A stretch of 64,000 bases of DNA. It comes from a virus. Below are positions 5,130-59,091 of this stretch, piece by piece. The position numbers and the translations under genes were made by a program. Each line of letters begins with the position of its first letter. The first letter of the stretch is position 1. Under the pieces are notes generated by a model that was not told the origin of the DNA, searched no databases, and saw only the letters and a list, made by a program, of their open reading frames with translations. The stretch is from positions 1 to 64,000 of IMG/VR virus record IMGVR_UViG_3300036790_000425. One strand, given 5' to 3'.

Positions 5130-5189
5130 GTCGCCTCCTCCCTCCTTCCGTGGCGGACAGATCGCGGCGGTGCAACGTCCGGAACTGGC

Positions 5190-28444: not shown

Positions 28445-28681
28445 ATGAGCGAAACGGTCCCCGCCGAGAGCCTGAAGCCCCGCGATGTCATCCTGGTCAG
28501 CCACAAGGGGCGCGACGTCCGCGTCACCATCCTGCGCGACCAGGAAGCCTGCACCGAGCAGGTCGGCCCGCTGGCGGGCGATCCCCGCATCCGGTTCTGG
28601 GCCCGCCGGGAGGACACCGGCCGGGAGGCCTGGATGATCTACGGCCCGGGCGGCGTCGTCCGGCTGGACGAGCGCGCATGA
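28445..28681 (+). CDS. Small beta-rich protein read from a leaderless start
   Basis: 78 residues from ATG 28445 with no ribosome site and no room for a leader after the -10 box. Strand-rich (KPRDVILVSHKGRDVRVTIL). It overlaps the methyltransferase gene (ATGA) and so is co-transcribed with it. Could be a partner or regulator of the methyltransferase; unrecognised. Confidence 0.65.
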   Translation: MSETVPAESLKPRDVILVSHKGRDVRVTILRDQEACTEQVGPLAGDPRIRFWARREDTGREAWMIYGPGGVVRLDERA

Positions 28682-30844: not shown

Positions 30845-30873
30845 TTGCGCATTAGCAAGAAACCCTGTAATGT
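30845..30873 (+). promoter_or_regulatory. Operator-promoter, copy 9
   Basis: -35 TTGCGC (30845-30850), spacer ATTAGCAAGAAACCCTG, -10 TAATGT (30868-30873). Operator inverted relative to copy 11, which has the same -35 and -10. Leader GGTCTTGCAGGAGAACGACA. Confidence 0.9.
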
Positions 30874-41476: not shown

Positions 41477-42365
41477 CCAGCATCTCCGGCGCAGCGCTGA
41501 TCAGGCCGCGGGCCACGCCCGCCTCCTCCAGGCCGGACATGCCGCCCTTGCCGTCCCCGCCGTGGCCCTCCGGGCCCGTGCCGCCGTCCGGGTCATCGTC
41601 GATCACCGAGCTGGACAGGTCGGCCATCAGGTAGCGGCCGACCACCACCCGGGCCACCCGCTCGCACTCGGCCGACGGCAGCTGGGGGTTGGCGCTCGCG
41701 ATCGCGGCCGTGGCCAGCCGCACCCGGCCGTGCACCGGGTCAAGCCGGGAGGTCACCTGCCCGGCTGGGGATGGCTGCGGCACGGTGGTCGGGTCCGGGG
41801 TCGCGCCCGCCGGGATGTTGGCCGGGGCCGGTCCCGCGCTCCCGCCGGCCGGCTGCGGCGGGGTCGGGGCCGGCGGGGGCAGCGCAGAGGCATCCGCCTG
41901 CCGGCTCATCCCGGTGGCCTCCTGGACCGGTCCCTGGGCCGGCGGCCGGACCTGGGTCACCTGCGGGTCCGGTCCGCCGGGCGGCCCCTGGGGCACCTCG
42001 GAGTAGCCGTGCGAGAAGTCCGGGCCCTCGCTGTGCTCGTCCGGCTCCTCAGGGCCGGAGCCGTAGCCGCCGCCGTCCGGGACCCAGGCCAGCGGGTCCT
42101 GGCCCTCCGCCAGCGCCTCGGTCATCAGGACCCAGCGCCGGGCGGCGAGCGCGGCCAGCTCCTCCACCGGCAGCCCGTTGCGGTCGGCAATGGACTCCAG
42201 CCGCTCGCCGGCGATCGCCAGCCGGTGCGCGAACTCGGCCGCGGTCCGGGCCGGGGCCAGGAACGGGAAGATCCCCTCGAAGTCCGCCTCCGCCCGGGCC
42301 AGCGCGGCCTCGCGCTCGATCCCCTCGTGACTGGCCGATGCCTCGGCCCACAGGTCGTCAGTCAT
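41466..42365 (-). CDS. Helical and Pro-rich protein sharing a motif with the next large protein
   Basis: 299 residues from ATG 42365 (ATGA overlap). Helical N-terminal 90 residues (RTAAEFAHRLAIAGERLESI), then residues about 100-128 contain a motif GSGPEEPDEHSEG followed by YSEVPQGPPG that recurs in the adjacent 1,139-residue protein. A long Pro/Ala linker follows and a helical C-terminus (GRVRLATAAIASANPQLPSA). Probably a virion-associated protein given the neighbours. Unrecognised. Confidence 0.65.
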   Translation of the reverse strand: MTDDLWAEASASHEGIEREAALARAEADFEGIFPFLAPARTAAEFAHRLAIAGERLESIADRNGLPVEELAALAARRWVLMTEALAEGQDPLAWVPDGGGYGSGPEEPDEHSEGPDFSHGYSEVPQGPPGGPDPQVTQVRPPAQGPVQEATGMSRQADASALPPPAPTPPQPAGGSAGPAPANIPAGATPDPTTVPQPSPAGQVTSRLDPVHGRVRLATAAIASANPQLPSAECERVARVVVGRYLMADLSSSVIDDDPDGGTGPEGHGGDGKGGMSGLEEAGVARGLISAAPEMLAAL

Positions 42366-45300
42366 GATCCTGCCTCTCCGCTGATGAGACCGGCTCCCAG
42401 GCCGCTGCTCAGGGACGCCTGAACGCGGGCCCGGAACACCGCCATCCGGTCGCTGCCGTGCGGGTCGCCGGCGTAGGCATCCGGGTTGGAGTACCCCTCC
42501 TGGTTCGCCGTGTTCGGCGCGACCGGGGCCAGCGTGGCGTTCTCCGGGTGGTCCCCGCTGAAGGTGTTGGTGAACGGGCCGTCCTTCTGCTCCGGCCGCT
42601 GCGGCTTCCCCAGCACGTCGTCGGGCACCACCGGGCCGCCGGGCAGCGGCGGCGCGCCCTGGTACGGGCCGGGGCCGCCCGGGGTGGCTGCCTCGTCCAG
42701 GCCGCCCATCGGCGGCGGCTGGCCCGGGCCGTTCAGCGGCGTGGCGCCCATCGGGTCCGGCGACGTGCCCGGCCCGTCGGTGATCAGGTCGGTGCTGGTG
42801 CCCGCCCTGCGGACCAGGTAGGCACCCTGAGCGCGCAGGCCCTCGTTCCGGTAGCCGGTCTTGCGGCTGAACGAGCGGTGCAGGGCGACCCGGCGGCCCA
42901 GCTCGGGATGCTCGTCAGCGCGGATGGCGTGCCAGGCCAGCCACCGGTCCTGGATCTCCGGGCGGTCGGTGATCCCGGCGTACAGCCCGGCCTCGAAAGC
43001 GGCCGAGCCGGTGGTCACCAGGGCGACCCGGGGGACCCAGGCAGAGGCGAATCCGTAGCCCTTCCGGAAGTCCGGGTCATCGTGCAGCTGCGCCGGCACG
43101 AACGCATCCGACACCCGGCTGGCCTTCGCCACCTGGAAGGCCCGCTGAGCCTCGGTGTCGTTCATTGCCTGGCCGCTGTCGCCGCCGATCGAGGCCGGGA
43201 CATCCTGCGGCCCTGAGGGAGCCTGTGCGGCCCCGTACTCGGCGGCGTAGCCCTTGACGTAGGGCGAGACCCCGGAGGAGTTGTCAGCGAACGCAGGGCG
43301 CTCCCCGGCGGCCTTGTCGGCCCGGCCCGCTGCGGCGCCGGCGGCATAGTCGGCGTCCTGCGGCATGGCGTTCGAGCTGGCCGGGTCCGGTGCCGTGGCC
43401 GGGGTATTGAACGGCGGCGCGGCGTCGTCGGTGGTGGCGTGCGGCGCGGTCATCGTGTCGGCCCGCACCACCCGCGCGGTCCGCTGGCCGTGCAAATCCG
43501 TTCGCTCACCGTAAACGCACTTGTGCGGGCAGTCGCAGCCGGGCTTATGGCCGCAGTCGGTGCAGTGCGGCTCCTCCGGACTGCCGCCCGTGCCGGAGTC
43601 GGCCGCCGTGCGGGCGCTGGCCGTGGCACGCACGCTCCGGGCCTTCTGGGCCTGATCCCGGGCGTCCTGCCAGTGCGGGAACAGGTCCGGGCGGCCGGTC
43701 ATCTCGCCGTAGCTCTCGCGCGTCATCGGCGTGCCGCTGTAGGTAGCCGCGTGCACCCCGTTGTAGGACCGCAGGTAGGCCCCGTGCGACCGGGCCGACC
43801 ACGGGTAGTCGTCCTTGTGGTAGGGCTTCTTGCCGTCCAGGGCGTCCATGTTCCCGAAGATCCGGGCGTGCGCCTCGGGCAGCCCGGTCAGCCCGGCTGC
43901 CTGGACCTGCTGCTTCCCGCCGGCCGGGACGGCGCCCTGCGGGCCGGTGGTCCACTGCTGAGTCCAGGCCTCGCTCAGCGGGAAGGCCACGCCCTCGGGC
44001 AGGTCATCATCCTGCGGGGCGGGCGCGTTATTCGGGTCGGTCACCTGCTGGACCTGGTCCAGGCCGGACGCGCCGTGGTGGTGCATGATCTCGGCCGGCT
44101 GGCCGTAGGCCTGGTCGTTTCCGCAGTCGTTGCAGTGGATCTGGTTCTTGCCGTCCCCGCGGGACAGCTTGACGTTCTTGCTGTGGCACTTCGGGCAGGC
44201 CGGGGACGGCACGGCGGCCTCGCGGCTGGCACCCTCGGCCTGGTGCCTGATAGCCCCGCAGTAGGCATCCGGGTCGTCTTTGTCCTGATTCACCCTGATA
44301 CATGACTGAAAGTCAGCATATCCCGCGAACGGGGCACCCTTGGTGAGTGCCGCCTCAGCGGCCCGGGAAAAATCCAGGCGGCGCCCGGACTTGCCGAACT
44401 CATGCTCCTTGCGGTCCACGTAGGAGTCCACCTCGGACCGCGGAACGCCCTTGACCTTCCCCTTCAGCCGCTCAGCGTTCTCCAGGTCGCCCTTGTTCTC
44501 GATCGGCAGCTTGCCGCCGGGCAGCGCATCGCCCTTCTTCTCGGCTGCGGCCCGCTCGTCCCTGGTGAAGTCCCGGGCCAGCACCGGCCGCACGACCGCC
44601 ATGAAGCCGTGCAGGACAGCGGTGTCCTCGGCAGTACGGTCACTGGCGCCCCAGCCGGCCGTCACGCGATTGTGCCGCGCGCCCAGCTCATCCAGGGATC
44701 GAACGCCCTGAACGGCCCGGCGGCCCTCCCGGGCCCCCAGCTCCTCCAGCCCGGCCAGCCGGCGAGCGGTGTCCAGGTCCATCGCGTAGCCGATCGCCAC
44801 TGACGCGGTGTGCTCGCTGCCGCCCGTGCAGCCCTCCTCCGGCCAGTGCGCGCTGGCGCACTTCTCGTGGAATGGGTGCATCACCTCGCCCGTGGTCAGC
44901 CACCGGTAGCCGAACGGGTCCGGGGCGCTGTAGCCCTCGATCCTGGCAGCCTGGCGGCGGTCAGCGCCGGCGTCCTGCGGCTGGCCGGCCACGGGGTTCG
45001 GTGCAGACGAGCCGGCGGAGTCGGTCGCGGCCGGGGCGGTCGGCAGCGTGCCGGGCTGGCCCAGCGGTACCTCGGCGTAGCTGTTCGAGGTGTCGAATCC
45101 GGTGCTGTGCTCGTCAGGCTTCTCCGGGCCCGAGCCGAATCCCGAGCCGCCGCCGTTCTGCTGCTCGACCTGCTGGATCAGCGGCGCGCCGTCACTGGAG
45201 ATCTGCGAGCCGTGGTTGTTGTCCTCGACCTGGTTGAACTGGTCCTGCTCCTCCCCGAACGTCGGGAAGACCTCGGTCGGGTAGGGGGTCTGGGACGGCG

Positions 45301-45781
45301 CGTTGTTCGGGTCCACCGTCTGGTCGATCTGCGGCAGCCCGCTGGCGCCCTGGTGCAGGTAGCCGACGTAGCCCAGGAACTCGCGCTCGGCGGCCGGGGC
45401 CTTCGAGCCGTAGGCCGACGCCAGGGTGTGCGCCCGGCCGCGGGCCTGGAGGCCCAGCTCCTCGCCGTCCTGCCGCACGGCCGGGTCCAGGGCGCGGTAC
45501 CAGACGGCGGCCTCGGAGACCATCGCGACCCGGAAGTCACCCTCGCCGGGGTCCCGGAAGTCGGCCAGCCAGTCGGTAGCCGCGGTGTGCAGCTCGTGCG
45601 CGGTGCGGGGCTCCATCCGGTGCGCCACGATCTCGGCGCCCAGGTCGGTCTCCCGGCCGGCGGCGGCGCTGGCCGCTGCCTGCCGGTCGAAGGTCTCCAG
45701 GGCGGCCACGGCGCGGGTCAGCCGCAGGCCGTTATCGCGGGACTGCTGGATCTCGCGCACCAGGGCGCTGCGGTCAGTCAT
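42362..45781 (-). CDS. Very large protein with zinc ribbons and internal repeats
   Basis: 1,139 residues from ATG 45781 (AGAGGGACG upstream). Helical N-terminal domain; residues about 212-243 carry GSGPEKPDEHSTG and YAEVPLGQPG, shared with the gene downstream. Two copies of a motif GASGL-x5-Q-x-x-DPNNAP lie near residues 140 and 570. A zinc ribbon near 525-550 (CPKCHSKNVKL, HCNDCGND) and a second Cys cluster near 740 (CTDCGHKPGCDCPHKC). The Tyr/Ala-rich part near 830 (QDADYAAGAAAGRADKAAGE) repeats. No enzyme motif is certain. It may be a virion or ejected protein. Confidence 0.65.
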   Translation of the reverse strand: MTDRSALVREIQQSRDNGLRLTRAVAALETFDRQAAASAAAGRETDLGAEIVAHRMEPRTAHELHTAATDWLADFRDPGEGDFRVAMVSEAAVWYRALDPAVRQDGEELGLQARGRAHTLASAYGSKAPAAEREFLGYVGYLHQGASGLPQIDQTVDPNNAPSQTPYPTEVFPTFGEEQDQFNQVEDNNHGSQISSDGAPLIQQVEQQNGGGSGFGSGPEKPDEHSTGFDTSNSYAEVPLGQPGTLPTAPAATDSAGSSAPNPVAGQPQDAGADRRQAARIEGYSAPDPFGYRWLTTGEVMHPFHEKCASAHWPEEGCTGGSEHTASVAIGYAMDLDTARRLAGLEELGAREGRRAVQGVRSLDELGARHNRVTAGWGASDRTAEDTAVLHGFMAVVRPVLARDFTRDERAAAEKKGDALPGGKLPIENKGDLENAERLKGKVKGVPRSEVDSYVDRKEHEFGKSGRRLDFSRAAEAALTKGAPFAGYADFQSCIRVNQDKDDPDAYCGAIRHQAEGASREAAVPSPACPKCHSKNVKLSRGDGKNQIHCNDCGNDQAYGQPAEIMHHHGASGLDQVQQVTDPNNAPAPQDDDLPEGVAFPLSEAWTQQWTTGPQGAVPAGGKQQVQAAGLTGLPEAHARIFGNMDALDGKKPYHKDDYPWSARSHGAYLRSYNGVHAATYSGTPMTRESYGEMTGRPDLFPHWQDARDQAQKARSVRATASARTAADSGTGGSPEEPHCTDCGHKPGCDCPHKCVYGERTDLHGQRTARVVRADTMTAPHATTDDAAPPFNTPATAPDPASSNAMPQDADYAAGAAAGRADKAAGERPAFADNSSGVSPYVKGYAAEYGAAQAPSGPQDVPASIGGDSGQAMNDTEAQRAFQVAKASRVSDAFVPAQLHDDPDFRKGYGFASAWVPRVALVTTGSAAFEAGLYAGITDRPEIQDRWLAWHAIRADEHPELGRRVALHRSFSRKTGYRNEGLRAQGAYLVRRAGTSTDLITDGPGTSPDPMGATPLNGPGQPPPMGGLDEAATPGGPGPYQGAPPLPGGPVVPDDVLGKPQRPEQKDGPFTNTFSGDHPENATLAPVAPNTANQEGYSNPDAYAGDPHGSDRMAVFRARVQASLSSGLGAGLISGEAGS

Positions 45782-45851
45782 CGGGCCGTCCCTCTCGTCG
45801 CTGCTTCCTGTACCTTCTGCGGCCCGGTCACGAGATGGCGAACCCGGATGA

Positions 45852-46352
45852 TCACGGGGAGATAACGGTAACGTCCGGGCTGCGGATGGCCCCGAGCAGG
45901 CTCGCCACGTCCGCTGCCCGCAGCGGAGGCAGCCGGCCAGCTTCCAGGAAGTCCAGCCACAGGCCCGCGACCTCGGGAGCGGCCAGGCCTGCATGCACCC
46001 GGTCAGCATCCCAGCCGGGCATCCGGCCGTACCAGACGCGGCGGCCCTTCCCGGAGTCGGGCTTGCGCACGGGCTCGAAGCCGGGGACGGCTGCCGCCAT
46101 CCCGGTCAGCTCACGGATCTGGCGGCGGGTGAGGATCACCCGGCCCCCGGCTTCGAGCTGCCGGCCGGCCACCGCGAGCACAGGCTCGTCTTCCCCGGCG
46201 GCCGACCGCCGGCCCGCCGCATCCTGGCTCGCGCACCGCTGATGCAGCTTCCGGCCGTAGTACCAGAGGATCTCCTCGCCCAGGATGAACTCGCCGCCGC
46301 AGCCTGGTGCATCGCACGTCAGGCCGGACTCCCAGACAGTCACCGTGGACAA
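45852..46352 (-). CDS. Zinc-binding protein of unknown function
   Basis: 166 residues from TTG 46352, chosen for GGGAGG six bases upstream (GTG 46343 is a possible later start). N-terminal CDAPGCGGEFILGEEILWYY followed by LHQRC gives a C-x4-C...H-x2-C zinc site. The rest is helical with LTRRQIRELTGMAAAVPGFE, a helix-turn-helix-like stretch. Preceded by a strong hairpin. Confidence 0.6.
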   Translation of the reverse strand: MSTVTVWESGLTCDAPGCGGEFILGEEILWYYGRKLHQRCASQDAAGRRSAAGEDEPVLAVAGRQLEAGGRVILTRRQIRELTGMAAAVPGFEPVRKPDSGKGRRVWYGRMPGWDADRVHAGLAAPEVAGLWLDFLEAGRLPPLRAADVASLLGAIRSPDVTVISP

Positions 46353-48841: not shown

Positions 48842-50452
48842 CTATTCGAGCGTGTCCTGACCGCCGCGCCGCAGGAACTCCATCGTGGCCGACACCTTCG
48901 CCGCCGGCAGGCCGCACCGCTCACAGGAGTCCGCGGCTGCCACCTTGTCCAGGCCGCCCGTCCCGCCGGTCGGGATCTCCTGCTTGTTCTTCAGGTCCCA
49001 GATCGCGATCTGATTATGGTGCTGCGCCATCCTGGTCGCCCCCTCCAGGCCGTGAACGTTGTGAGAGATGTCCAGGAACACATTCCCCGACTCATGATCA
49101 TGCCACGTCCCGAGATGCGCCCCGGGCTGCGCGAAGTGGCTGGCATGTCCCTGGATATAACTGCGCAGGACGTGATGTCCCTGCGGTCCGAAGAACTCGT
49201 GCGCCGGCAGGAAGTGGCTGCCCTCCTGCTGAGCCACCATGTAGCCGCCCGACGGGGACCGGCCCGAGGTCAGGCTTACAGAATGACCGCCGTTGCGGTG
49301 CGTCCGGTCGATGATCCGGTGCATATCCCGGAAGGAGCTGGTCGGCTCCCTGCTGCGCGCCTCAGTCCTGATCCCGGCGCCCAGCGGGAAGCGCACCACC
49401 TGGTCGCCGCGCTTCACGTGCAGGTGCGTGAACGACACCTGGCGGGCCGGGTGCGACGGCGGGACCGGGTCGCCGTCCTCCAGGTAGGCCAGGGTGACGT
49501 GCGGCCGGTAGTCCTGGTGCTCGCTCGCGCTCAGGTCCTCCAGCTCGCGGCGCAGCTGGCTGATGCCGGGCACGTAGGCCGGGACGAAGACCGGGGTCTT
49601 CCCGTCACTGGCCTCGCTCGGCGGGAAGGTGCCCGTGCCGCGCAGCACGCCGTGCAGCGGCTTCGAGCGGGCCCCTGCCTCGGCCGCCCGCTGCATGGCG
49701 GTGCCGAACGCCTCGTCGCTCAGCCCCTTGCCCAGGTAGACCACCGTGATGTGGGGCTCGTCGTCCACCCCGCCCGGGACCCGCTCGATCAGGCCCTCCG
49801 GGATCGGCAGGTAGATCATCCCGCTGCGGGGCGCTACGTCGTAGCCGGCTACGCCCTCGCGAGGCTCAAGTTTCGTTGACTCTTGCTCTTGAACATCCAA
49901 GGAAACCCCGCCTGCACTTGAATGATCGCGCCGGACTGATGCCGACTTGCGAACGTTGTCCCAGGACTTGGCGAAGGCCGGGTGCAGGTCCAGGTGCTTC
50001 ACCTCTCGCGGCGCGAACCAGCCGGCCCCGGCGATCTCGTGATCGGTCTCGCCCCGGCCGCGCGGGGTGAACAGCTCCGGCGAGTCGTAAGAGACGGTGT
50101 GGAACTTCCAGTCACCGCAGTCGGTGGACACGGTCGTGGACCGGTGGCTGGTGCCGCGCGGCAGCGCGCCCATCTCCTCCCGGAACTCCCGCAGCGCGCC
50201 GTCCTCGGGGCTCTCGTCCTTCCCCCTCGCGCCGGACGGGATTGACCAGGTGTCCGGGTGATCCACGGCCGGGCTGCGCTTCTGAAGCAGGTAGCGGACC
50301 TGGCCGTCCTCGCCCTTGTGGCGCATCAGCAGGCCCGCCGCGCCGTACGCGCCCCAGTGCTCATGACCCTTCGAGCAGGTGACCATCCGGTCGCCGTCCG
50401 AGCCAGAGGCCACGCGCACGGCGGACGGCCTGATCTCGTTATACCCGGTCAT
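48842..50452 (-). CDS. Nudix hydrolase and 2H phosphoesterase protein (internal start)
   Basis: ATG 50452 overlaps the HNH stop (ATGA), so this 536-residue part can be made by itself. Nudix domain about residues 15-150 with all box residues; 2H domain about 220-375 with two HxT tetrapeptides, as in 2'-5' RNA ligase/cyclic phosphodiesterase-like enzymes. Known members hydrolyse ADP-ribose-type diphosphates (Nudix) or 2',3'-cyclic or ADP-ribose 1'',2''-cyclic phosphates (2H). With an ADP-ribosyltransferase array next door, a role in NAD or ADP-ribose turnover or in RNA-end repair is inferred. Confidence 0.75.
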   Translation of the reverse strand: MTGYNEIRPSAVRVASGSDGDRMVTCSKGHEHWGAYGAAGLLMRHKGEDGQVRYLLQKRSPAVDHPDTWSIPSGARGKDESPEDGALREFREEMGALPRGTSHRSTTVSTDCGDWKFHTVSYDSPELFTPRGRGETDHEIAGAGWFAPREVKHLDLHPAFAKSWDNVRKSASVRRDHSSAGGVSLDVQEQESTKLEPREGVAGYDVAPRSGMIYLPIPEGLIERVPGGVDDEPHITVVYLGKGLSDEAFGTAMQRAAEAGARSKPLHGVLRGTGTFPPSEASDGKTPVFVPAYVPGISQLRRELEDLSASEHQDYRPHVTLAYLEDGDPVPPSHPARQVSFTHLHVKRGDQVVRFPLGAGIRTEARSREPTSSFRDMHRIIDRTHRNGGHSVSLTSGRSPSGGYMVAQQEGSHFLPAHEFFGPQGHHVLRSYIQGHASHFAQPGAHLGTWHDHESGNVFLDISHNVHGLEGATRMAQHHNQIAIWDLKNKQEIPTGGTGGLDKVAAADSCERCGLPAAKVSATMEFLRRGGQDTLE

Positions 50453-51877
50453 GCCACCAGTTCGAGGTGTTCCCGGATATAGGCCACCGTCAGCTCGAAC
50501 AGCACCGGATCGTCCCCGAGATTCCGTACTCGGAAGTTGCATCCCACGCACAGCAGCTTGCGCTTCTTGCCCGTGACGTGGTTGTGGTCCACGCACAGGC
50601 TGATCCGATCCGAAGCCCCTGCCTCGATCGGGCAGATCGCACACTTGCCGCCCTGGGCGGCCAGCATCTCCTCGTACTCCTCGATGGTGATGCCGTAGGT
50701 CCGCTTCAGGTAGACGTTGCGCACGTACCTGGCCCTGCCACCCTTGCGCTCCATCATCCGGGCCTGAGCCGCAGCCTGGTGAATCGTCGCGCACGGCGGG
50801 CAGTAGCTCCCCCTGAACGTGGCGCGGGTGCCCTCCGTCCCGCATGTGGCGCACCACCTCGGGGTCTGGTCGGTCCGGTACCGCTTCATGCGCTCGACCT
50901 GCTGAGTGCTGCGGCACTTCTTGCACACGCCCCGGAAGTAGCCCTTCGGTCCGGCCTTCTTGCCGGGCGGAGTCCAATCGAAATGATCCTGGTCCTGCGG
51001 CTTGGTCTCGTGGCAGCGAGTGCAGGTCTTGGTGTCCATAGCCACTAATGTTACCCGGAGAAACATTGCCGGGGCCGGACGCGCCGGGCTCAGAGAAGAC
51101 GAGTTTCCTGATCTTCTCCAAAATCCTATCAGGACTATAGGAAAGCCATTTCTCGATCAGGTTGCCAGCGTCCTGCCAGCCGTCGCCCTCGTCACTGAAG
51201 GCCCGGCGGCGCTCAGCGTGCAGCCGCTCCCACAGGGCCCTGGCCTGCCGGGTGCGGGCGGGCTCGGCCTGGCGCAGGATGGCCCGGGCCTCGGTGGCCA
51301 CGGCACGGGCCTGGGACAGGATCGCGGGATCGAAATCGGCGGCCGAGTGCGCCGGCAGGTGCGGCGGCCGGACCGCCCACTTCGAGTCGCTGAGATCCCA
51401 GGCCGCGTAGGGCTTGATCCGCCGGATATCCCAGGCACCCGGGTTGACGTAGCCGGTCAGGTCAAAGTGACCGCCGCAGTCCGGGTGCCAGTCCGGGTCG
51501 TTGAAGTGCCTGCGCAGGACATCATTCAGCGCCGCGTCAATCGCGGCATCACCCTTCTTCGGCCAGCCGACTGCACGGTTCCAGTTCCAGGCCTCGTAAT
51601 CCACGCCGATCAGGATGTCCAGGTCCGTGGCCGCGTCGTTGGGACGGCCGCCGGCCCACTCGCTGGCGCTGCCGCCGGCCAGGTAGACCTTCAGGTACTC
51701 TTGCCACTCCGAGCCAGTCAGGCCGCCGTCTACGCGCAGCGCCCGGTCCAGCCGCTCCATGATGTCGTGGCGCACGGCCGGGCGCAGCTCGTGACGGCTG
51801 TTGAACAGCACCGGGTCAAGCCCGCTGGTCGGCCCGAAAATGCCGCTGGACGGCAGGTACCGGGCTGCCTCGGTCAC
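48842..51877 (-). CDS. Continuous frame: nucleotidyltransferase-like + Nudix + 2H phosphoesterase, interrupted by HNH
   Basis: GTG 51877 overlaps the ART-array stop (GTGA). The frame is open for 1,011 codons. Residues 1-275: nucleotidyltransferase-like (LAGGSASEW... DLDILIGVDYEAW). Residues about 280-475 are Pro/Gly/Arg-rich and coincide with the HNH gene in another frame, so they look like a shadow. From ATG 50452: a complete Nudix box (GARGKDESPEDGALREF then REEMGA), then a 2H phosphoesterase with both HxT motifs (EPHITVVYL, RPHVTLAYL), then a domain with GTWHDHESGNVFLDISHNV and NNQ-like NQIAIWDL, ending with a CERCG knuckle. Either two genes around an inserted HNH gene, or one former gene. 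Confidence 0.6.
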   Translation of the reverse strand: MTEAARYLPSSGIFGPTSGLDPVLFNSRHELRPAVRHDIMERLDRALRVDGGLTGSEWQEYLKVYLAGGSASEWAGGRPNDAATDLDILIGVDYEAWNWNRAVGWPKKGDAAIDAALNDVLRRHFNDPDWHPDCGGHFDLTGYVNPGAWDIRRIKPYAAWDLSDSKWAVRPPHLPAHSAADFDPAILSQARAVATEARAILRQAEPARTRQARALWERLHAERRRAFSDEGDGWQDAGNLIEKWLSYSPDRILEKIRKLVFSEPGASGPGNVSPGNISGYGHQDLHSLPRDQAAGPGSFRLDSARQEGRTEGLLPGRVQEVPQHSAGRAHEAVPDRPDPEVVRHMRDGGHPRHVQGELLPAVRDDSPGCGSGPDDGAQGWQGQVRAQRLPEADLRHHHRGVRGDAGRPGRQVCDLPDRGRGFGSDQPVRGPQPRHGQEAQAAVRGMQLPSTESRGRSGAVRADGGLYPGTPRTGGMTGYNEIRPSAVRVASGSDGDRMVTCSKGHEHWGAYGAAGLLMRHKGEDGQVRYLLQKRSPAVDHPDTWSIPSGARGKDESPEDGALREFREEMGALPRGTSHRSTTVSTDCGDWKFHTVSYDSPELFTPRGRGETDHEIAGAGWFAPREVKHLDLHPAFAKSWDNVRKSASVRRDHSSAGGVSLDVQEQESTKLEPREGVAGYDVAPRSGMIYLPIPEGLIERVPGGVDDEPHITVVYLGKGLSDEAFGTAMQRAAEAGARSKPLHGVLRGTGTFPPSEASDGKTPVFVPAYVPGISQLRRELEDLSASEHQDYRPHVTLAYLEDGDPVPPSHPARQVSFTHLHVKRGDQVVRFPLGAGIRTEARSREPTSSFRDMHRIIDRTHRNGGHSVSLTSGRSPSGGYMVAQQEGSHFLPAHEFFGPQGHHVLRSYIQGHASHFAQPGAHLGTWHDHESGNVFLDISHNVHGLEGATRMAQHHNQIAIWDLKNKQEIPTGGTGGLDKVAAADSCERCGLPAAKVSATMEFLRRGGQDTLE
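50449..51039 (-). CDS. HNH endonuclease, endonuclease VII-like, nested between domains
   Basis: 196 residues from ATG 51039 (an earlier ATG at 51066 is in frame). Three zinc knuckles (CTRCHETKPQ, CKKCRS, CATCG... CPPC), then the nuclease core typical of recombination endonuclease VII-like HNH proteins: MLAAQGGKCAICPIEAG, LCVDHNHVTGKKRKLLCVGC, NFRVRNLGDDP. The DHNH and CxxC...CxxCN residues are present. Such free-standing enzymes often act as homing endonucleases in phages. It lies in a different frame from the surrounding continuous frame, and AT-rich sequence flanks its upstream edge (51105-51160). Confidence 0.87.
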   Translation of the reverse strand: MDTKTCTRCHETKPQDQDHFDWTPPGKKAGPKGYFRGVCKKCRSTQQVERMKRYRTDQTPRWCATCGTEGTRATFRGSYCPPCATIHQAAAQARMMERKGGRARYVRNVYLKRTYGITIEEYEEMLAAQGGKCAICPIEAGASDRISLCVDHNHVTGKKRKLLCVGCNFRVRNLGDDPVLFELTVAYIREHLELVA

Positions 51878-54800
51878 GCCGTCAGCGCCTTGCGCTCGGG
51901 TTCGGTCCACGCACCTTCCGTGCTGCGCAGGATCTCTGCTGCCTCGTCCGCGGTGCCGGCCAGGTGACCGGACATCTGCCGCAGCAGGTCCGGCATGCTC
52001 TCCGCGAGCGGCAGGTGCTCGCACCTGGCCGCCAGCGTCCCCAGGGCGGCCGACACGATCCGCAGGGCGCCGGGTACCTCGTGCAGCATGGACACGACAT
52101 CCTCGGCGCTCTGGGGCTGGTAGGACGCGATCCGCATCGGCATGTCCCGCAGCGCCCGGGCGACCGACACCGGCTGCGCCTTCTCAGGCAGACTCGCCGC
52201 GGCGGCAGCCTCGTGCACCTGGTGGATGAAGCTGGCCGGCAGGGGCTCGCGCAGCGCGTGCACGGTGCCCTCCGTGGCCTCCCGTGGCTCGCTGAGGTAG
52301 CGCGAGACCTGGTCCCGGGGCACGTGGATCTCCACGACGCGCGGGCTCGTCCAGTCCCGCTGCCCGGCGATCAGGGCGGCGCCGTCCCGGCTGGTGGTCA
52401 CCGTGGGCTGGTCCGGGGACTGGGCCGGACGCAGGCCGCCGGACTGGATGCCGGCGGTGTCGTCGTGGTGCGCGCCGTGGTAAAGCACGTAGGGATCAGC
52501 GGGCTGACCCAGTGCGGCCTCATGATCGCCCCAGCCCTCGTCCTCCTCGTCATACCGGGACTCGATGTGCTCCGGGACCGGCATCTCGCGGTGCACGCCG
52601 AACCCGGTCCGGCTGCGCACGTCGCCTGGGTTCACCCGGCGCGAGTTTCCTCCCTCGTCATGAGTCGGGTCCTTCTCGACGTCGTCGGCATGCGGGGTGA
52701 CCTCGAAAACCCTGGGCCGGCCGCCGTGCGCCTCCGCCGCGCGCTCGGCGTAGTCCCAGGCGCTGCCCGGGTCCGCCGTGGCGAAAGCGTGCGTGCCGTC
52801 GTGATCCTGCGGGAAGTTCCGCCGCCCGCTGCCCTGCGGGGTGATCTGATCCGGATCGCCGCTGTCGTTCGTGCCGTGGTAGTAGGGTCCCCGGGCCGGC
52901 TCACCGCGCTTGCCCCGGTCCAGGGCATCCATGTCCCGGCGGAAATTGCGATCATGCTCGCCCTCGCTGGCGTCGAACATGCCGTAGCAGTGCTGGCACA
53001 CAGCCGGGCTCCGGCCGCCGCCCTCGCCGTGGTCACCCGGGCCAGGCGGCCGGAACCGGCGGCTGCCGCAGTCCGGGCAGGCGGCATCCTCGTGCGGGAC
53101 GGCCGGCTCCAGCGCGGCGGTGCGCTTCTGCTTCTCCAGGGCGCGCAGGCCCTTCCGGTAGGGCTCGTAGACGGAATCCGTCTCGTCGTTCACCCAGCTG
53201 TAGCTCTCCGGGCCGTTCCGGTCGTCGCGCATGTAGCGGGCGGAGCCGTGCCAGGGCTCGTGCACGGCCAGCATCTGCCGGGGGTGCACGTCACCGCGCA
53301 TGATCACGTGGTGGTGGCCCTCGCCCCACTCCCTCAGCTTGCCCTGGTCGTAGCTGCCGTCCTTATTGCGGGCATGCCAGGGTGACTCGGCGTTGCCGGA
53401 GATCTCATCCGGGTGGGCGTGGTACTCCACGACAGCCGCATGCCCTGAGTGATCATCCAGGATGTCGTCCGGGCGCTTAGTGGAGGCCCACACGCCGGCC
53501 GACGGGTCATCCAGGTTGTGGTCCCCGGCATCGCCCCGGGCGCGGCTGCGCTGGAGTCCGTGCTGCCGGATCGAGTCCACGTTGTCCAGCGGGGTGTAGT
53601 GCCAGAGCCGGACGCGCCCGGCCGGGATCTCGGCGGTGCCGGGATCGGCCGGCAGCTCATCTCGGCTGTGCAAGGCGCCCTCCTTCGGGATGCCGACGTC
53701 GGTATAGTTCACCGTGCCGTGCTGACCTGGCCGGTGGCTGACCGGGACGTGGCGGTCCACCGGATGCCACGTCCAGCCCGGCGGGTTGTGCTCGGGGTGC
53801 AGGGGGTGCACCGTGCCCTCCTTGCCGGGCTCGCCCACCCAGGCCCCCTCCACGTGCACCGAGGAGCCGGGGTGCAGCCGGACCTCCGCCTCCGACGGCA
53901 GCGACTCGTGCCTGCCGCGCCACATCGGGTGCGAGCGGGAGATGGCCTGGGACTCCGGGTGCTCCAGCCGGGACTGCCACACCACCGGCCGGGTGCTCGG
54001 GCCGCCCCGTTCGGGGCCGGTGATAACGCCCTCCGGCTTCGCGCTCCAGTGCATGCCGAGCGAGCGGGTGCCGGAGATGTCCTCGCCGGCCGGGCGGCGC
54101 TCGCCGCGCCACAGCCGCAGGCCCGGCTCGGGCCTGCTGGCCACGTCCAGCATCTTCCTGCTGTAATCCCGGTCATCGGCAGCCGCCAGGCCCTCGCGCT
54201 GGGAGTCGATCATCGGCGGCAGGTGGCTCAGGTCCGGCGGCCGGTGCGGGCTCAGGCCGCTGCCGGGGAAGTCCCGGGACAGGCCGCGCCCGTGCCGGTC
54301 GTTGGCTACCTGGATCTTGGCATCGGTGTAGTGACGGCGGGCCAGCGCCGCGGCGTCCTCATGCCCGGCACCGTCCAGGGCCAGGGCGTAGTGCCAGGTG
54401 AAGCCCCGGCCGTGGCGCCGCTCGTCCGGGTCCTTGTCGCTCGGCCGCGGGTGCCTGTCCCAGGACTCCCGGGGCCGGGCCTCCTCCAGCGCCTGCCGCT
54501 TATCGGTCATGACGTGCGCGGCATGATGAGCCAGCTCATGGATGCTGCCGTGCTCCGGGGCCACGGCGGAGTCGATGTCCTCGCGCGGCATGAAGAAGCT
54601 GGCCTGACCGAGCATCTTCCGCAGCGTGCCGGTGCGGTCCTCCGGAGCCTGGCCCAGGTGCGGGTGCTCCTGGCTGACTTTCGCCTCGACGGCGGCGTGC
54701 ACTGCGCGGTTGGGCTCGGCAGCGACGTGATCAGCCACAGCGGTGCGGCGGACCCGGGGGAGCGGGATCTGGCTGCGCGTGGCCGCGTACCCCTCCGCTG

Positions 54801-56559
54801 AGGCGTGCCACTTGTCGTCCGGGTGATAGTCGATCTCCAGGGTGTGACCGCGCACGCCCGTCTCGCCCTGGTGGCGCCAGCGCTCATCCGGGGCAGCCGA
54901 GGCCCGGGTGTAGCCGCCGCGTGACTGGAGGTACCCGTTGTGCTGGGCGTCATCCCATTCACCCGGATCAGCAACCCGGTAGAGCTTGCTGACCGGCTTG
55001 CCGCTCAGAGTCAGGCCGCCCTCCGGATGCTGCTCGATCCGGCCGCCGTATAGCTCCCCGGGCGAGGGGAGGATGCTCCCGGGCCGGGGCAGCGCAGGCC
55101 CTGAGAGCGCCCGGGAGAGACGCTCCTCGGACTCCCTCCTCTGGCTGTCGTCAGCGGCTGCTGCGACGTGCTCACCGCTCTCGGCCTCGAAGTGCGCCAC
55201 GACGGCCGCCTGATGCTCGCCGCTGACGAAGTGCTCCGGCTTCAGGTCCGAGGCGCGGACGGTGTAGAACTTCTCCGTGCCGCCGCCGAACGAGTCGTTC
55301 TCGGTGGCCAGGTGCCGGGGCACCCGGACATGCACGGCCTCCGGACCGTAGCCGCCGCCGTAGAAGCCGTGCGGGACGTCCGAGAAGAACACCGGGCCCT
55401 GCTTGCCGTGCTGGTCGATCATCCGGCGCTGGCTGCGGATCGCGGCGGCGTTCTCCGGCGTGGTGTGGTGGTACAGGTCCACCTGATCAGCGGCACCCTC
55501 GTGGCGCGTCGGCTCATCATCGTCGTCGCGGTGCATCTCCTGGCACTCCGGGCAGTTGCGGGGCTGGTCGCTCTCGCGCGAGGTGTCGGCCACCACGCCC
55601 TCCATCGAGGACTTGCCCGTCAGCCGGGCCCGGGCATACCGGTGGTGGCCGTCAAGCAGGTAGGTCCTGCCCTCATGGCGGACGAACCGGGCCGGCTCCT
55701 CGTCGTAGGGGCGCCCCGTCTCGTGCTCGTAGCGGTCCACGAGCTGCTTATCGTGCATCGTGTCGGCGTGCACGAAGGGCTGGTGAACGTGGATCTGCTG
55801 CCTCAGCGAGACGCGCTCAGGAGCCATGTGACGCCAGTGGTCCTCCTGCTGGTCCAGGTCGTCCGGCCAGCCGTGGTGCTCCAGCCGGGGGATCTCGTGC
55901 GGCTCGACGTGCGGGCCCCAGGAGTGCGGGAAGTGCACCACGCCGTTCTCGTCAGCGCGGCGGTTCACCCAGTCGCTGATCCGGTCCTCGCGGCGCTCCC
56001 GGGCGGCAGGGGAGGCAGTCTCGTAGCCAGCCCCGAAATGGTCCATGAGACCGCCGGTCACCTCGCGGATCACCCGGAGCGGGTGCTCGCTGTAGTGGCT
56101 CCGGGGATTCCACCGGTCCGGCTTGTGCTCGCCGGTCGGCTCGACCTCGAACACCCGGGCGTGCTCCGGCGGCCTGCCCTGCTCGCGCGCCGCCTGGCTG
56201 GCAACGTCCCGGGCCCAGCCCGGGCTCTCAGTGAAGAAGGTCTCCTCGCTCGGGCCCTCCCAGCCGCGGTCCAGGGCGCGGGGCATCCCCGTGGTCACCA
56301 TGTCGTCAGGCTGGAACGGGTGCGTGGTGCCGTGATAGAAACGCGGCCCGGTACCGGCCTCGAAATGCTCCAGGACGCCGGAGCGCCAGTGCTTGCGGCG
56401 GGGCTGGGGCTGGCCGGGGCAGTGCGGGTCGCGGGCGCCCTTATCGGTGGTGCCGGTGCCGCCGCAGCGCCCGCAGGACGAGCCGTCGCCGTGCTCGCCC
56501 GTGCCGCCGCAGCAGGAGCAGGACTCCTGGCCCCGGCCGGGGCGGGCGGCGGCGCTCAT
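51874..56559 (-). CDS. Giant protein with about seven ADP-ribosyltransferase-like modules
   Basis: 1,561 residues from ATG 56559 (leaderless from copy 15); a form 23 residues longer starts at ATG 56628 with AGGAGG. Residues 13-36: two CxxCGGTG knuckles, DnaJ-like. ART-like modules: 1 at about 73-166 (FYHGTTH, FFTESPGWARD, RVFEVEPTGEH), 2 at 358-443 (LYHHTTPEN), 3 at 525-600 (LYRVADPGEW), 4 at 813-890 (LWRGERRP, SEAEVRLHPGS), 5 at 986-1100 (LWHYTPLDN, VIMRGDVHPRQML), 6 at 1226-1315 (YYHGTNDSGD, HAFATADPGSAWDYAE, RVFEVTPHAD), 7 at 1358-1420 (LYHGAHHDD, VVEIHVPRDQV). Modules 1 and 6 are closest to the Arr (rifampin ART) type. A ParB-like part (LLDGHHRYARA, about 246-325), an HELAHH at about 671, and a zinc ribbon (CPDCGSRRF, CQHCYGMF) near 1160-1195. 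Likely delivered or expressed to modify host targets with NAD; inferred. Confidence 0.75.
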   Translation of the reverse strand: MSAAARPGRGQESCSCCGGTGEHGDGSSCGRCGGTGTTDKGARDPHCPGQPQPRRKHWRSGVLEHFEAGTGPRFYHGTTHPFQPDDMVTTGMPRALDRGWEGPSEETFFTESPGWARDVASQAAREQGRPPEHARVFEVEPTGEHKPDRWNPRSHYSEHPLRVIREVTGGLMDHFGAGYETASPAARERREDRISDWVNRRADENGVVHFPHSWGPHVEPHEIPRLEHHGWPDDLDQQEDHWRHMAPERVSLRQQIHVHQPFVHADTMHDKQLVDRYEHETGRPYDEEPARFVRHEGRTYLLDGHHRYARARLTGKSSMEGVVADTSRESDQPRNCPECQEMHRDDDDEPTRHEGAADQVDLYHHTTPENAAAIRSQRRMIDQHGKQGPVFFSDVPHGFYGGGYGPEAVHVRVPRHLATENDSFGGGTEKFYTVRASDLKPEHFVSGEHQAAVVAHFEAESGEHVAAAADDSQRRESEERLSRALSGPALPRPGSILPSPGELYGGRIEQHPEGGLTLSGKPVSKLYRVADPGEWDDAQHNGYLQSRGGYTRASAAPDERWRHQGETGVRGHTLEIDYHPDDKWHASAEGYAATRSQIPLPRVRRTAVADHVAAEPNRAVHAAVEAKVSQEHPHLGQAPEDRTGTLRKMLGQASFFMPREDIDSAVAPEHGSIHELAHHAAHVMTDKRQALEEARPRESWDRHPRPSDKDPDERRHGRGFTWHYALALDGAGHEDAAALARRHYTDAKIQVANDRHGRGLSRDFPGSGLSPHRPPDLSHLPPMIDSQREGLAAADDRDYSRKMLDVASRPEPGLRLWRGERRPAGEDISGTRSLGMHWSAKPEGVITGPERGGPSTRPVVWQSRLEHPESQAISRSHPMWRGRHESLPSEAEVRLHPGSSVHVEGAWVGEPGKEGTVHPLHPEHNPPGWTWHPVDRHVPVSHRPGQHGTVNYTDVGIPKEGALHSRDELPADPGTAEIPAGRVRLWHYTPLDNVDSIRQHGLQRSRARGDAGDHNLDDPSAGVWASTKRPDDILDDHSGHAAVVEYHAHPDEISGNAESPWHARNKDGSYDQGKLREWGEGHHHVIMRGDVHPRQMLAVHEPWHGSARYMRDDRNGPESYSWVNDETDSVYEPYRKGLRALEKQKRTAALEPAVPHEDAACPDCGSRRFRPPGPGDHGEGGGRSPAVCQHCYGMFDASEGEHDRNFRRDMDALDRGKRGEPARGPYYHGTNDSGDPDQITPQGSGRRNFPQDHDGTHAFATADPGSAWDYAERAAEAHGGRPRVFEVTPHADDVEKDPTHDEGGNSRRVNPGDVRSRTGFGVHREMPVPEHIESRYDEEDEGWGDHEAALGQPADPYVLYHGAHHDDTAGIQSGGLRPAQSPDQPTVTTSRDGAALIAGQRDWTSPRVVEIHVPRDQVSRYLSEPREATEGTVHALREPLPASFIHQVHEAAAAASLPEKAQPVSVARALRDMPMRIASYQPQSAEDVVSMLHEVPGALRIVSAALGTLAARCEHLPLAESMPDLLRQMSGHLAGTADEAAEILRSTEGAWTEPERKALTA

Positions 56560-56628
56560 GCCCCTTACATTAGCAAGGTTTCCTGTAACAGGCGAGAGCG
56601 GAGCGAAGTGCGCCAGCAGCGGGTCCAT
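56560..56628 (-). other. Alternative 5' extension of the ART-array gene
   Basis: ATG 56628 is preceded by AGGAGGCAACTC, a strong ribosome site, and adds 23 residues (MDPLLAHFAPLSPVTGNLAN...) in frame with ATG 56559. There is no room for a promoter between the terminator at 56659-56688 and this start, so it would be used on read-through messages from the terminase side. Confidence 0.6.
56567..56595 (-). promoter_or_regulatory. Operator-promoter, copy 15, inside the 5' end of the ART-array gene
   Basis: Minus strand: -35 TCGCCT (poor), spacer GTTACAGGAAACCTTGC, -10 TAATGT (56567-56572). The predicted start falls on ATG 56559, seven bases on, giving a leaderless message. The site lies within codons 12-21 of the longer reading frame from ATG 56628. 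Confidence 0.75.
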
Positions 56629-56964: not shown

Positions 56965-59091
56965 TCATGATCTATGCCGGCGGGCCGCCGCCAGCCCGGC
57001 CCGGCCGCCGGGAGAGCGCCCGGTCATCCCTGACATACCTACCCTGGCTGCCGGTCTCACACCCCGGGCCAGGCCGCCCCGCCCGTTCATGCTGCCGAGT
57101 GAGGAGGCATAGGGATTGCCCTGGTCAGGGCTGAAGCGGTCCAGCGGGTCGGTGCCGCCCACCATGCCGCCGCGGGGCCGCTGGTTCTTCAGGTCCTTGG
57201 CCAGGTAGGCCTTCATCTGCTCGCCCAGCAGCCGGGCCGTGGTGATCGCGATGCAGTCCGCGATGTCCTTGGTCTGCACCGGGCCGGAGGTAGCCGGCAG
57301 CACCTTGGACTGGCCCTCGGGCTTCTGGAGGAACCGCAGCTCGTCCTTGGCCTCGCCGTGCGGCGGGCAGTGCACGAACTCCATGTTCAGCGCGGCCTTG
57401 AACGTCTCCCAGGTGGACCAGTTCAGCGCCGCGGTGGCGGTGCGCTCGTAGACCACGATGTTCTTCTGGAGCCGGGCGCCCCGGACGCGCTTCTGGAGTG
57501 CCTGGACGCTGGCCACGGAGTTGAACTGGTCGAAGGTCAGCTCATCCGGCTGGAACCTCTCGATCACGTTATCGAAGATCCAGTCCCCGACCTCGTCATA
57601 GTCGATGATGTGATCGGGAAAGTCCGCCGGGTCCCAGTAGTGGATCAGGTCGAACACGGCATGGTCCAGGCCGTCGGGGCCCGGCTCGGTGTGCGCGACC
57701 GCGAAGCCGAACCGGCAGTTCACCGCCGACGGGTCGCCGTGCGCGGTGTAGGTGATGTAGAGCGGCCCCCTGGTCTGCATGACCAGATCGGGCCGGCCGT
57801 ACTGCGGGTCCCGGTCCTGCCACGGCTCGAACATCCGGTCAATGCGCGAGGTGTTCAGGTAGGCGTCCATCGCGGTCGCCCAGTCCGAGCGGCGCTCTAC
57901 GGCAAAGGTGTCCGGGTTGGCCTTCTCCTCGCGCGCCATCTCCTCGTCCAGGGCCTGGATGGCGCCCTTCAGCGGGGCCAGCACCGGCAGTGCCTCGGGC
58001 TCGTACTCGCCCAGGTCACCCCGGTAGCCAGGCGGGAACAGCGGCAGCCGGCTGGCCAGCTCCCAGTCCTCGTAGATGGCCCAGGACTCCAGCTGCACCA
58101 TGAACTTGGTCGGGTAGGCCGGCATCACCTCGCCGGGCTCGGGGCCGGGCTCGGACTGGAGCGACAGCTCCCACAGCTCGTAGAACTTGCCGATCATCTC
58201 CCAGGTGCTGGAGGGCAGCACGATGAAGCCGTCGGTGCCGAACTGGTCCAGCGACGGCTTGGCCGCGCCGTAGATAACCCCGAACTCCCGGGTCACCCCG
58301 GCGTTCTTGACGTGCGCCGCCTCGTCGAAGGCCAGGATGCAGCCGGCCGGGCCGCGCGGGGCCAGCGGCGTGGACTCCCGGGGCAGCACCCGGAAGGTAG
58401 CCATGTCCCGGGTGGAAGACAGGCCGCGGGCCGCCAGCTTGTGCATCCGGACGAAATCATAGGGCGCGTACAGCGTCAGCGACTCGGCCTGCGGCTCGGA
58501 GATGAACGGCGTGAAGCAGGGCGCGGTGGTGATCACCGAGTAGAGATCGCCCCAGAGGTTCTCCTTGGCCTGCTCCTTCTTGCCGGCGAACACCGCGATC
58601 GCCAGCGGCTTCTCCTGGTCGATCCCGTAGTACTCCTGGGGATTGCCCTTGGCGATGTAGTGCCACAGCACGTAGCTCATGGCCAGCGCGGACAGGTAGC
58701 CCTTCGAGCCGCGGCGGCCGATCGCGATGATCAGCTCGGGGAACCACTTGTAGCCGCGCTTCTTCAGGTAGGCGATCCGCTCGAACAGGTCCGGCTGGAG
58801 GCCCTTGGTCCGGGCCGAGAACTTGTTGTCGCCGGCGTCGGGGTTAGTCTCGGTGAACCGGCGCTGCCACTCCGCGATGACCTTGCGGTCGTAGTCGGTG
58901 AACAGGTCATCGCGCAGGAAGATGATCTTCAGCAGAGTGGCCTGGCGCGGGTACAGATTGGGCTTTCCGCACCAGTCCTCACTTATTACGAAAGTGATGG
59001 GGTCTGGCACAGGAGGGCCGTCATACCAGGACAAAACGTCCAGCGGTCCGGCTGTGCCGGTGTCGGGGGCCTGCCAGCGGCTGATCGCCAT
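56965..59091 (-). CDS. Terminase large subunit
   Basis: 708 residues from ATG 59091. ATPase part: a degenerate P-loop-like ELIIAIGRRGSKGYLSALAM near residues 117-137 and a clear Walker B CILAFDEAAHVK near 256. The C-terminal half (YITYTAHGDPSAVNCRFGFA, FDLIHYWDPADFPDHIIDYD, ELTFDQFNSVASVQALQ) fits the RNase H-like nuclease domain of terminases that cut concatemeric DNA during packaging. The extreme C-terminus is Gly/Arg-rich. The neighbour at 60792 is the likely small subunit. Packaging motor function is well supported by the pattern. Confidence 0.85.
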   Translation of the reverse strand: MAISRWQAPDTGTAGPLDVLSWYDGPPVPDPITFVISEDWCGKPNLYPRQATLLKIIFLRDDLFTDYDRKVIAEWQRRFTETNPDAGDNKFSARTKGLQPDLFERIAYLKKRGYKWFPELIIAIGRRGSKGYLSALAMSYVLWHYIAKGNPQEYYGIDQEKPLAIAVFAGKKEQAKENLWGDLYSVITTAPCFTPFISEPQAESLTLYAPYDFVRMHKLAARGLSSTRDMATFRVLPRESTPLAPRGPAGCILAFDEAAHVKNAGVTREFGVIYGAAKPSLDQFGTDGFIVLPSSTWEMIGKFYELWELSLQSEPGPEPGEVMPAYPTKFMVQLESWAIYEDWELASRLPLFPPGYRGDLGEYEPEALPVLAPLKGAIQALDEEMAREEKANPDTFAVERRSDWATAMDAYLNTSRIDRMFEPWQDRDPQYGRPDLVMQTRGPLYITYTAHGDPSAVNCRFGFAVAHTEPGPDGLDHAVFDLIHYWDPADFPDHIIDYDEVGDWIFDNVIERFQPDELTFDQFNSVASVQALQKRVRGARLQKNIVVYERTATAALNWSTWETFKAALNMEFVHCPPHGEAKDELRFLQKPEGQSKVLPATSGPVQTKDIADCIAITTARLLGEQMKAYLAKDLKNQRPRGGMVGGTDPLDRFSPDQGNPYASSLGSMNGRGGLARGVRPAARVGMSGMTGRSPGGRAGLAAARRHRS

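What the first reader, a model, noticed from the sequence alone, without database searches (positions are those of the whole stretch)
51874..56628. An array of about seven ADP-ribosyltransferase-like modules in one phage protein
Seven separated segments begin with the Y-H-G-T or W-H-Y-T type strand of H-Y-(E)/R-S-E ART folds, often followed by a T/S-x-x-P-x-x-A helix start and a VFEV-type strand (modules 1 and 6 are nearly canonical Arr-like). A ParB-like module and two kinds of zinc knuckle are mixed in. Multi-enzyme polyvalent proteins are known from phages and conjugative elements, but an array of this many diverged ARTs in one chain would be unusual. It could modify several host targets at once, such as RNA polymerase, ribosomes or nucleic acids, as T4 Alt and ModA do individually.
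Basis: partly seen in the sequence, partly recalled or inferred. Interest (0 to 1): 0.85.

Follow-up and report, generated by a model that had tools for sequence, protein, structure and literature searches.

The report
Phage protein chaining several NAD-using enzymes
This large bacterial virus carries, next to its DNA-packaging gene, one long protein made of several different ADP-ribose-transferring enzyme modules in a row; related viruses carry the same kind of modules in reshuffled order, which suggests a set of enzymes stored in the virus head and injected to take over the host, although that has not been shown.

Summary
The gene is real: a 1584-aa ORF at window 56628-51874(-), beside the terminase of a Ceeclamvirinae-like actinophage. 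Of the seven proposed ART segments, two are Arr-family ARTs (profile to solved Arr structures E=6e-12; model Z 12.4 and 7.4). One has the catalytic half of the KptA/Tpt1 fold (Z 11.3). One keeps an R/S/E triad seen in 13 relatives. Two rest on motifs only and one is doubtful. Several modules have altered catalytic residues. Five related phages have the same locus (terminase, then 2-3 giant ORFs) with 7-10 candidate ART modules each, from about ten families in reshuffled order, mixed with ParB, zincin, nucleotidyltransferase, Nudix and 2H modules. Two short linker motifs lie almost only outside the recognised modules. LLxHFxA is nearly private to these proteins. [RK]TA[AGS] is also enriched in the head-maturation-protease polypeptide and associated large proteins but not in the rest of the proteome. 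I infer head-packaged polyvalent effectors, perhaps cut between modules. Polyvalent ART arrays are already known (12 copies in one Pseudomonas prophage protein), so this is a new variant. New here are the mix of ART clades, the shuffling locus and the linker motifs. Packaging, cleavage and catalysis are inferred, not shown.

The parts
51874..56628 (-). P0001, 1584-aa polyvalent protein
56599..56619 (-). N-terminal LLAHFAP motif (aa 4-10)
56452..56520 (-). DnaJ-like zinc knuckle CxxCxGxG (aa 37-59)
   Evidence: sequence; P0002 shows a weak DnaJ-model match at its homologous region
56356..56376 (-). VLEHFEA linker motif (aa 85-91)
56059..56343 (-). m1: Arr-family ART (aa 96-190; H99, F131 in place of Tyr, D171)
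56029..56049 (-). LMDHFGA linker motif (aa 194-200)
55534..55986 (-). ParB/VapB-like module (aa 215-365; LDGHHRY at 325)
55204..55497 (-). m2: putative ART-like module (aa 378-475; LYHHT, VFFS); motif only, no homologue found
55183..55203 (-). VVAHFEA linker motif (aa 476-482)
54754..55011 (-). m3: module also found as a stand-alone phage gene (aa 540-625); ART assignment doubtful
54736..54750 (-). RRTAV linker (aa 627-631)
   Evidence: sequence
54139..54732 (-). zincin-like domain (aa 633-830); HHAAH here where relative Q2 has HEAAH, so probably inactive
53749..54135 (-). m4: probable R-S-E ART (aa 832-960; R841, S862, E913/E915)
53134..53634 (-). m5: putative ART-like module (aa 999-1165; LWHYT, VWAST), 62% identical in G002
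53113..53124 (-). RTAA linker (aa 1169-1172)
52987..53079 (-). zinc ribbon CPDC..CQHC (aa 1184-1214)
   Evidence: sequence; conserved in G003 and G010
52582..52890 (-). m6: Arr-like ART (aa 1247-1349; H1251, F1282, D1320)
52195..52503 (-). m7: KptA/Tpt1-fold ART without the N-terminal lobe (aa 1376-1478; H1384, second His replaced)
51892..52170 (-). C-terminal helical domain shared with other proteins of this locus (aa 1487-1579)
51074..51859 (-). nucleotidyltransferase-like module of the next ORF (48842-52024)
   Evidence: the NTase name is from the GGS..D.D motif (inference)
49835..50401 (-). Nudix module of the next ORF
49379..49852 (-). 2H/LigT phosphoesterase module of the next ORF
56965..59091 (-). 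terminase large subunit, upstream neighbour
   Evidence: weak; 59-80% identical in four relatives

Best explanation
P0001 is a polyvalent early-effector protein of a Ceeclamvirinae-like actinophage. It is made late with the packaging genes, taken into the prohead, possibly cut between modules at the recurring linkers, and ejected with the DNA. Its modules then use host NAD+ to modify several host or defence molecules at once: Arr-type, KptA-fold and R-S-E ARTs, helped by the ParB-, nucleotidyltransferase-, Nudix- and 2H-type modules of the same locus. Shown here: the ART identity of m1, m6 and m7, the R/S/E conservation of m4, the conserved locus next to the terminase in five phages, the module shuffling, and the non-random linker motifs. 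Inferred: packaging, cleavage, injection, catalytic activity and targets.
For: Seven Arr-like modules from three phages give a profile that finds only Arr enzymes convincingly among solved structures (6e-12 to 1.2e-10). The m1 model matches Arr at Z 12.4, rmsd 2.4, 97 residues. The m7 model matches Tpt1/KptA at Z 11.3, rmsd 2.4, 89 residues, Foldseek 6e-5. The R of [HW]RG and a downstream E are invariant, and the S/T position nearly so, in 13 m4-type modules. The terminase followed by 2-3 giant ORFs recurs in G000, G001, G002, G003 and G010 with 7, 10, 9, 10 and 9 candidate ART modules in shuffled order. LLxHF: 26 seen against 1.6 in shuffles (maximum 8 of 200), 24 of 26 outside modules, and 9 in 137,457 aa of other genes. 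[RK]TA[AGS]: 22 against 2.5 expected in these proteins, 20 outside modules that cover 53% of the residues; also 5 against 0.5 in the head-maturation-protease polypeptide and 7 against 0.9 in a second head-linked family, but 24 against 22.7 in all other genes. dN is below dS in every module pair compared (for example 0.16 against 0.44 for m4, 0.20 against 0.69 for m3). Precedents: T4 Alt, P1 DdrB and head-packaged polyvalent proteins (PMC5512222); ARTs near terminase and portal genes (PMC9503650); prohead-protease processing of ejected proteins (PMC10052503).
Against: No virion proteomics exist for these metagenomic phages. m2, m3, m4 and m5 got low-confidence models and no profile hit to a known ART. 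The Arr Tyr is Phe in m1 and m6, and the second His of KptA is replaced in m7, so activity is uncertain. The LLxHF motif is absent from the protease and capsid proteins, so it need not be a cleavage signal. Enrichment of [RK]TA[AGS] in head proteins could reflect linker composition shared by disordered regions. Gene boundaries come from my own ORF calls.
Confidence: 0.6

Rival explanations
1. An NAD- and RNA-end-processing (repair or signal-scavenging) system that acts inside the infected cell: the KptA-fold ART, 2H, Nudix and nucleotidyltransferase modules clean RNA ends or destroy nucleotide immune signals, and the Arr-like modules act on small molecules.
For: m7 KptA fold; 2H and Nudix in the next ORF; nucleotidyltransferase. 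KptA, 2H and Nudix are linked in RNA repair and ADP-ribose processing (PMC9503650).
Against: m7 lacks the N-terminal KptA lobe and the second His. Most modules are Arr- or R-S-E-like, not KptA. The locus sits with packaging genes rather than with RNA ligases, and the head-type linker motif would be unexplained.
Confidence: 0.15
2. A multi-ART effector made and used after infection, not packaged; the place next to the terminase is accidental.
For: No direct virion evidence. Single Arr-like or m3-like modules occur as small stand-alone genes in other phages.
Against: Synteny with the terminase in five phages; [RK]TA[AGS] shared with the head protease polypeptide.
Confidence: 0.15
3. Mostly inactive ART-derived folds kept as internal head filler or DNA- or NAD-binding structural protein.
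For: Partly lost catalytic residues in m1, m6 and m7 and a degenerate zincin motif.
Against: Asp is kept in all seven and His in six of seven aligned Arr modules, and R and E in all 13 R-S-E modules. Rapid exchange between many ART families looks like effector diversification, not structural conservation.
Confidence: 0.08

Closest known systems
Polyvalent proteins of phages and conjugative elements (Iyer et al. 2017, PMC5512222)
   Same: Giant multi-enzyme chain with ART, ParB-like, zincin, nucleotidyltransferase and 2H domains, next to packaging genes; up to 12 ART copies in one chain reported
   Different: ARTs of several clades (Arr, KptA-fold, probable R-S-E) in one chain rather than copies of the HYD2 type; 2-3 adjacent giant ORFs with modules exchanged among relatives; recurring linker motifs partly shared with the head protease polypeptide
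Phage T4 Alt / ModA / ModB
   Same: Phage ARTs that act on the host; Alt is head-packaged and injected (PMC5512222)
   Different: Single-ART proteins of the Alt/VIP2 R-S-E clade; no sequence relation detected here
Arr (rifampin ADP-ribosyltransferase; 2hw2, ARR-2)
   Same: m1 and m6 fold and sequence; His and Asp kept
   Different: Tyr replaced by Phe in m1 and m6; part of a large chain; substrate unknown
KptA/Tpt1 RNA 2'-phosphotransferase
   Same: m7 has the catalytic-half fold (Z 11.3)
   Different: No N-terminal lobe in the m7 segment; second His replaced; about 20% identity in the structural alignment
ParB C-terminal domain (phrog_2579) of mycobacteriophages, e.g. Myrna gp78
   Same: Same module (YRSxP...GDWV.T...EWGY) as in relatives P0002 and Q1 of this locus
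   Different: There in a small ParB fusion, not in an array; not present in P0001

Membership tests
Polyvalent proteins (PMC5512222) | Several unrelated enzymatic domains in one chain | tested here: met
   Arr and KptA-fold ARTs, ParB-like, zincin-like; relatives add nucleotidyltransferase, Nudix and 2H in the same chain
Polyvalent proteins (PMC5512222) | Phage or mobile-element context near packaging or head genes | tested here: met
   next to the terminase in five phages
Polyvalent proteins (PMC5512222) | Packaged in the virion and injected | not testable with these tools
   needs virion proteomics
Arr family (m1, m6) | Arr fold and profile | tested here: met
   m1 Pfam above cut-off, Z 12.4; m6 iE 3e-24 with the family profile, Z 7.4
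Arr family (m1, m6) | Catalytic His, Tyr and Asp (as for Arr-ms; residues from general knowledge) | tested here: not met
   His and Asp present, Tyr replaced by Phe in both; Tyr is kept in three of the seven modules aligned. So: Arr-related, not shown to be rifampin ADP-ribosyltransferases
KptA/Tpt1 (m7) | ART catalytic-half fold | tested here: met
   Z 11.3, rmsd 2.4, 89 residues
KptA/Tpt1 (m7) | H-H-h active site and N-terminal lobe | tested here: not met
   H1384 kept, second His position is Thr (my reading of the motif TVTTS); no lobe within the segment. So: KptA-like fold, not filed as KptA
R-S-E ART (m4) | R on strand 1, S/T motif, catalytic E | tested here: met
   R and E invariant, S/T nearly so, in 13 sequences
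R-S-E ART (m4) | ART fold | tested here: inconclusive
   low-confidence model; no profile match in PDB
ART superfamily (m2, m5, m3) | ART fold or profile match | tested here: inconclusive
   motif only; low pLDDT; no Pfam or PDB match above cut-off

The most novel reading that the evidence does not exclude
The phage loads its head with a polyprotein that the maturation protease cuts at RTAA- and/or LLxHFxA-type linkers into a cocktail of 7-10 different ARTs plus partner enzymes. The whole locus works as a rapidly recombining effector cassette, so that each phage strain injects its own combination of NAD+-dependent modifiers.
Probability: 0.35. Interest if true: 0.82.

Novelty: new variant of a known kind. 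Interest (0 to 1): 0.62.

Why it matters
If the inference holds, one locus delivers several different NAD+-dependent enzymes per infection and swaps them between relatives, a phage counterpart of polymorphic toxin systems. The shared linker motifs give a direct sequence handle for finding head-packaged effectors and for testing how they are processed. The ART modules, several of families with no known substrate, are candidate new host-takeover or counter-defence enzymes.

Tried and rejected
tblastn of P0001 against 50,697 named phages: no match. m2 alone against phages, viral contigs and genome contigs: nothing. The m5 alignment against genome contigs: nothing. Profile comparisons between modules with hhalign were uninformative because the alignments are too shallow; they miss even m7 against Arr. 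Pfam and PDB profile searches with the R-S-E (A8) and YRSxP (A9) alignments found no known ART, so that assignment rests on the triad. An AlphaFold model of m2-m5 was attempted but the confidence was too low, so absence of matches there says nothing. The idea that LLxHF is the head protease cleavage site was set aside as the leading reading because it does not occur in the protease or major head protein. [RK]TA[AGS] is the better candidate, but it is not found in the major head protein N-terminus either. No Rfam match in the window and no tRNA.

Full report
WHAT IS THERE. The window is the first 64 kb of a 162,435-base virus record. Its portal is 35-38% identical over 63-71% of its length to portals of Ceeclamvirinae-type and related actinophages (Rhodococcus Finch and E3, Gordonia Pupper, Mycobacterium Myrna), and its major head protein is 58-59% identical to those of Myrna and Pupper. 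ORF 56628-51874(-) encodes P0001, 1584 aa. It lies directly downstream of the terminase (56965-59091). The next ORF (48842-52024) holds nucleotidyltransferase-like, Nudix and 2H modules.

SEGMENT BY SEGMENT. m1 (96-190) is an Arr-family ART: Pfam Arr-ms 3.5e-6, above its cut-off. A profile of seven such modules finds ARR-2 and Arr at 6e-12 to 1.2e-10. The model (block pLDDT mostly 85-97 there) matches Arr at Z 12.4. m6 (1247-1349) belongs to the same family (Z 7.4 to Arr-2). m7 (1376-1478) has the fold of the catalytic half of KptA/Tpt1 (Z 11.3; Foldseek 6e-5). m4 (832-960) carries R841, S862 and E913/E915; the R and one E position are invariant and S/T nearly so in 13 relatives, but the model is too poor to test the fold. 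m2 and m5 have an H-type first strand and a V[WF][AF]S strand by sequence only. m3 has no recognised ART feature beyond LYR and is also a stand-alone 160-aa phage gene. Five H-type strand motifs are far above chance (0.2 expected). In m1 and m6 the Arr Tyr position is Phe while His and Asp are kept; in m7 the second His position of KptA is Thr by my reading.

OTHER MODULES. There is a DnaJ-like zinc knuckle (37-59), a ParB/VapB-like module (215-365), a zincin-like domain (633-830), a zinc ribbon (1184-1214) and a C-terminal helical domain (1487-1579). In the zincin-like domain a relative has HEAAH where P0001 has HHAAH, so it is probably dead here.

RELATED PHAGES. A terminase scan and an Arr-module scan found relatives. 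In five phages (this one and four relatives with terminase 59-80% identical) the terminase is followed by two or three giant ORFs. With HMMs built from these proteins, the candidate ART modules number 7 (G000), 10 (G001), 9 (G002), 9 (G010) and 10 (G003). They are drawn from Arr, YRSxP, two R-S-E families, WFHGT, WYHGT, LYHVT, m5, m7 and the m2/m3 types, in different orders. WFHGT, WYHGT, LYHVT and YRSxP are called ART-like from their motifs only. For example, the zincin plus m4 pair is 73% identical between P0001 and P0003 but has different neighbours in the two proteins. Module pairs show dN below dS.

LINKERS. [LVIMF][LVIMAE]xHF, mostly LLxHF[GEA]A, occurs 26 times in the 12 proteins against 1.6 in shuffles. 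24 of the 26 are outside recognised modules, and other genes of three genomes have 9 in 137 kaa. [RK]TA[AGS] occurs 22 times against 2.5, with 20 outside modules. It is also enriched in the head-maturation-protease polypeptide (152975-156697; phrog_18299; 5 against 0.5), in the 42362-46009 family (a stretch similar to a protein annotated capsid maturation protease in phage Cece; 7 against 0.9) and, marginally, in the portal-side SWIM protein (4 against 0.6, shuffle maximum 3), but not in 505 other genes (24 against 22.7). These patterns were chosen after looking at the sequences, so the enrichment figures are exploratory; the contrast with the 505 other genes is the most informative part.

HOW IT PROBABLY WORKS. 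The most likely reading is a head-packaged polyvalent effector. It would be built with the packaging genes, enter the prohead, perhaps be cut between modules, and be ejected to modify several host or defence molecules with NAD+. Precedents are T4 Alt, P1 DdrB and the polyvalent proteins in general (PMC5512222), ARTs near head genes (PMC9503650) and cleavage of head proteins by the prohead protease in SPN3US (PMC10052503). Steps shown: ART identity of three modules, triad conservation in a fourth, synteny, shuffling, linker enrichment. Steps inferred: packaging, cleavage, injection, activity, targets.

NOVELTY. ART arrays exist: one Pseudomonas prophage protein has 12 ART copies (PMC5512222) and phage G encodes at least 10 ARTs (PMC9503650). 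What I did not find described is a chain that mixes Arr, KptA-fold and probable R-S-E ARTs, a terminase-linked locus in which such modules are exchanged between relatives, and linkers shared with the head protease polypeptide. The literature library searched is open-access only, so prior description cannot be excluded. Filed as a new variant of a known kind.

Noticed in passing
window 34282-34302, 38173-38193 (+), 30851-30871, 33166-33186 (-) and others: A 21-bp element ATTACAGGGTTTCTTGCTAAT occurs exactly four times in the window and 18 times in G000 with up to 4 mismatches, in both orientations. In several copies it lies between a TTGCGC-like hexamer and a TAATGT-like hexamer spaced about 17 bases apart; a candidate operator or promoter element. 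None in G001, more degenerate copies in G002.
   Followed up: partly
window 50449-51066 (-): An HNH-like ORF (CxxC motifs) in another frame starts where nucleotidyltransferase homology of ORF 48842-52024 ends; the long ORF there is probably two genes with an inserted endonuclease gene between them.
   Followed up: no
window 51892-52170; L003/L004, record position 80959-82866: The C-terminal helical domain of P0001 recurs at the C-terminus of other giant proteins of this locus and near the C-terminus of an arginine/glycine-rich membrane-type protein elsewhere in the genome.
   Followed up: partly
window 642-5384 (-): Portal-side giant protein with a SWIM-type zinc finger (by motif) and a weak GNAT match; its homologue in G001 (140062-146622) carries two extra R-S-E ART-like modules.
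   Followed up: partly
L073 6001-6336 (Streptomyces phage Frankenweenie gp344): A 120-aa hypothetical protein 57% identical to the Arr-like module of G002 Q1: the module as a stand-alone gene in a named phage.
   Followed up: no
window 28678-29838 (+): ORF with a cytosine-methyltransferase-like start (VVDLFSGAGGMSYGF), seen in the gene list only.
   Followed up: no
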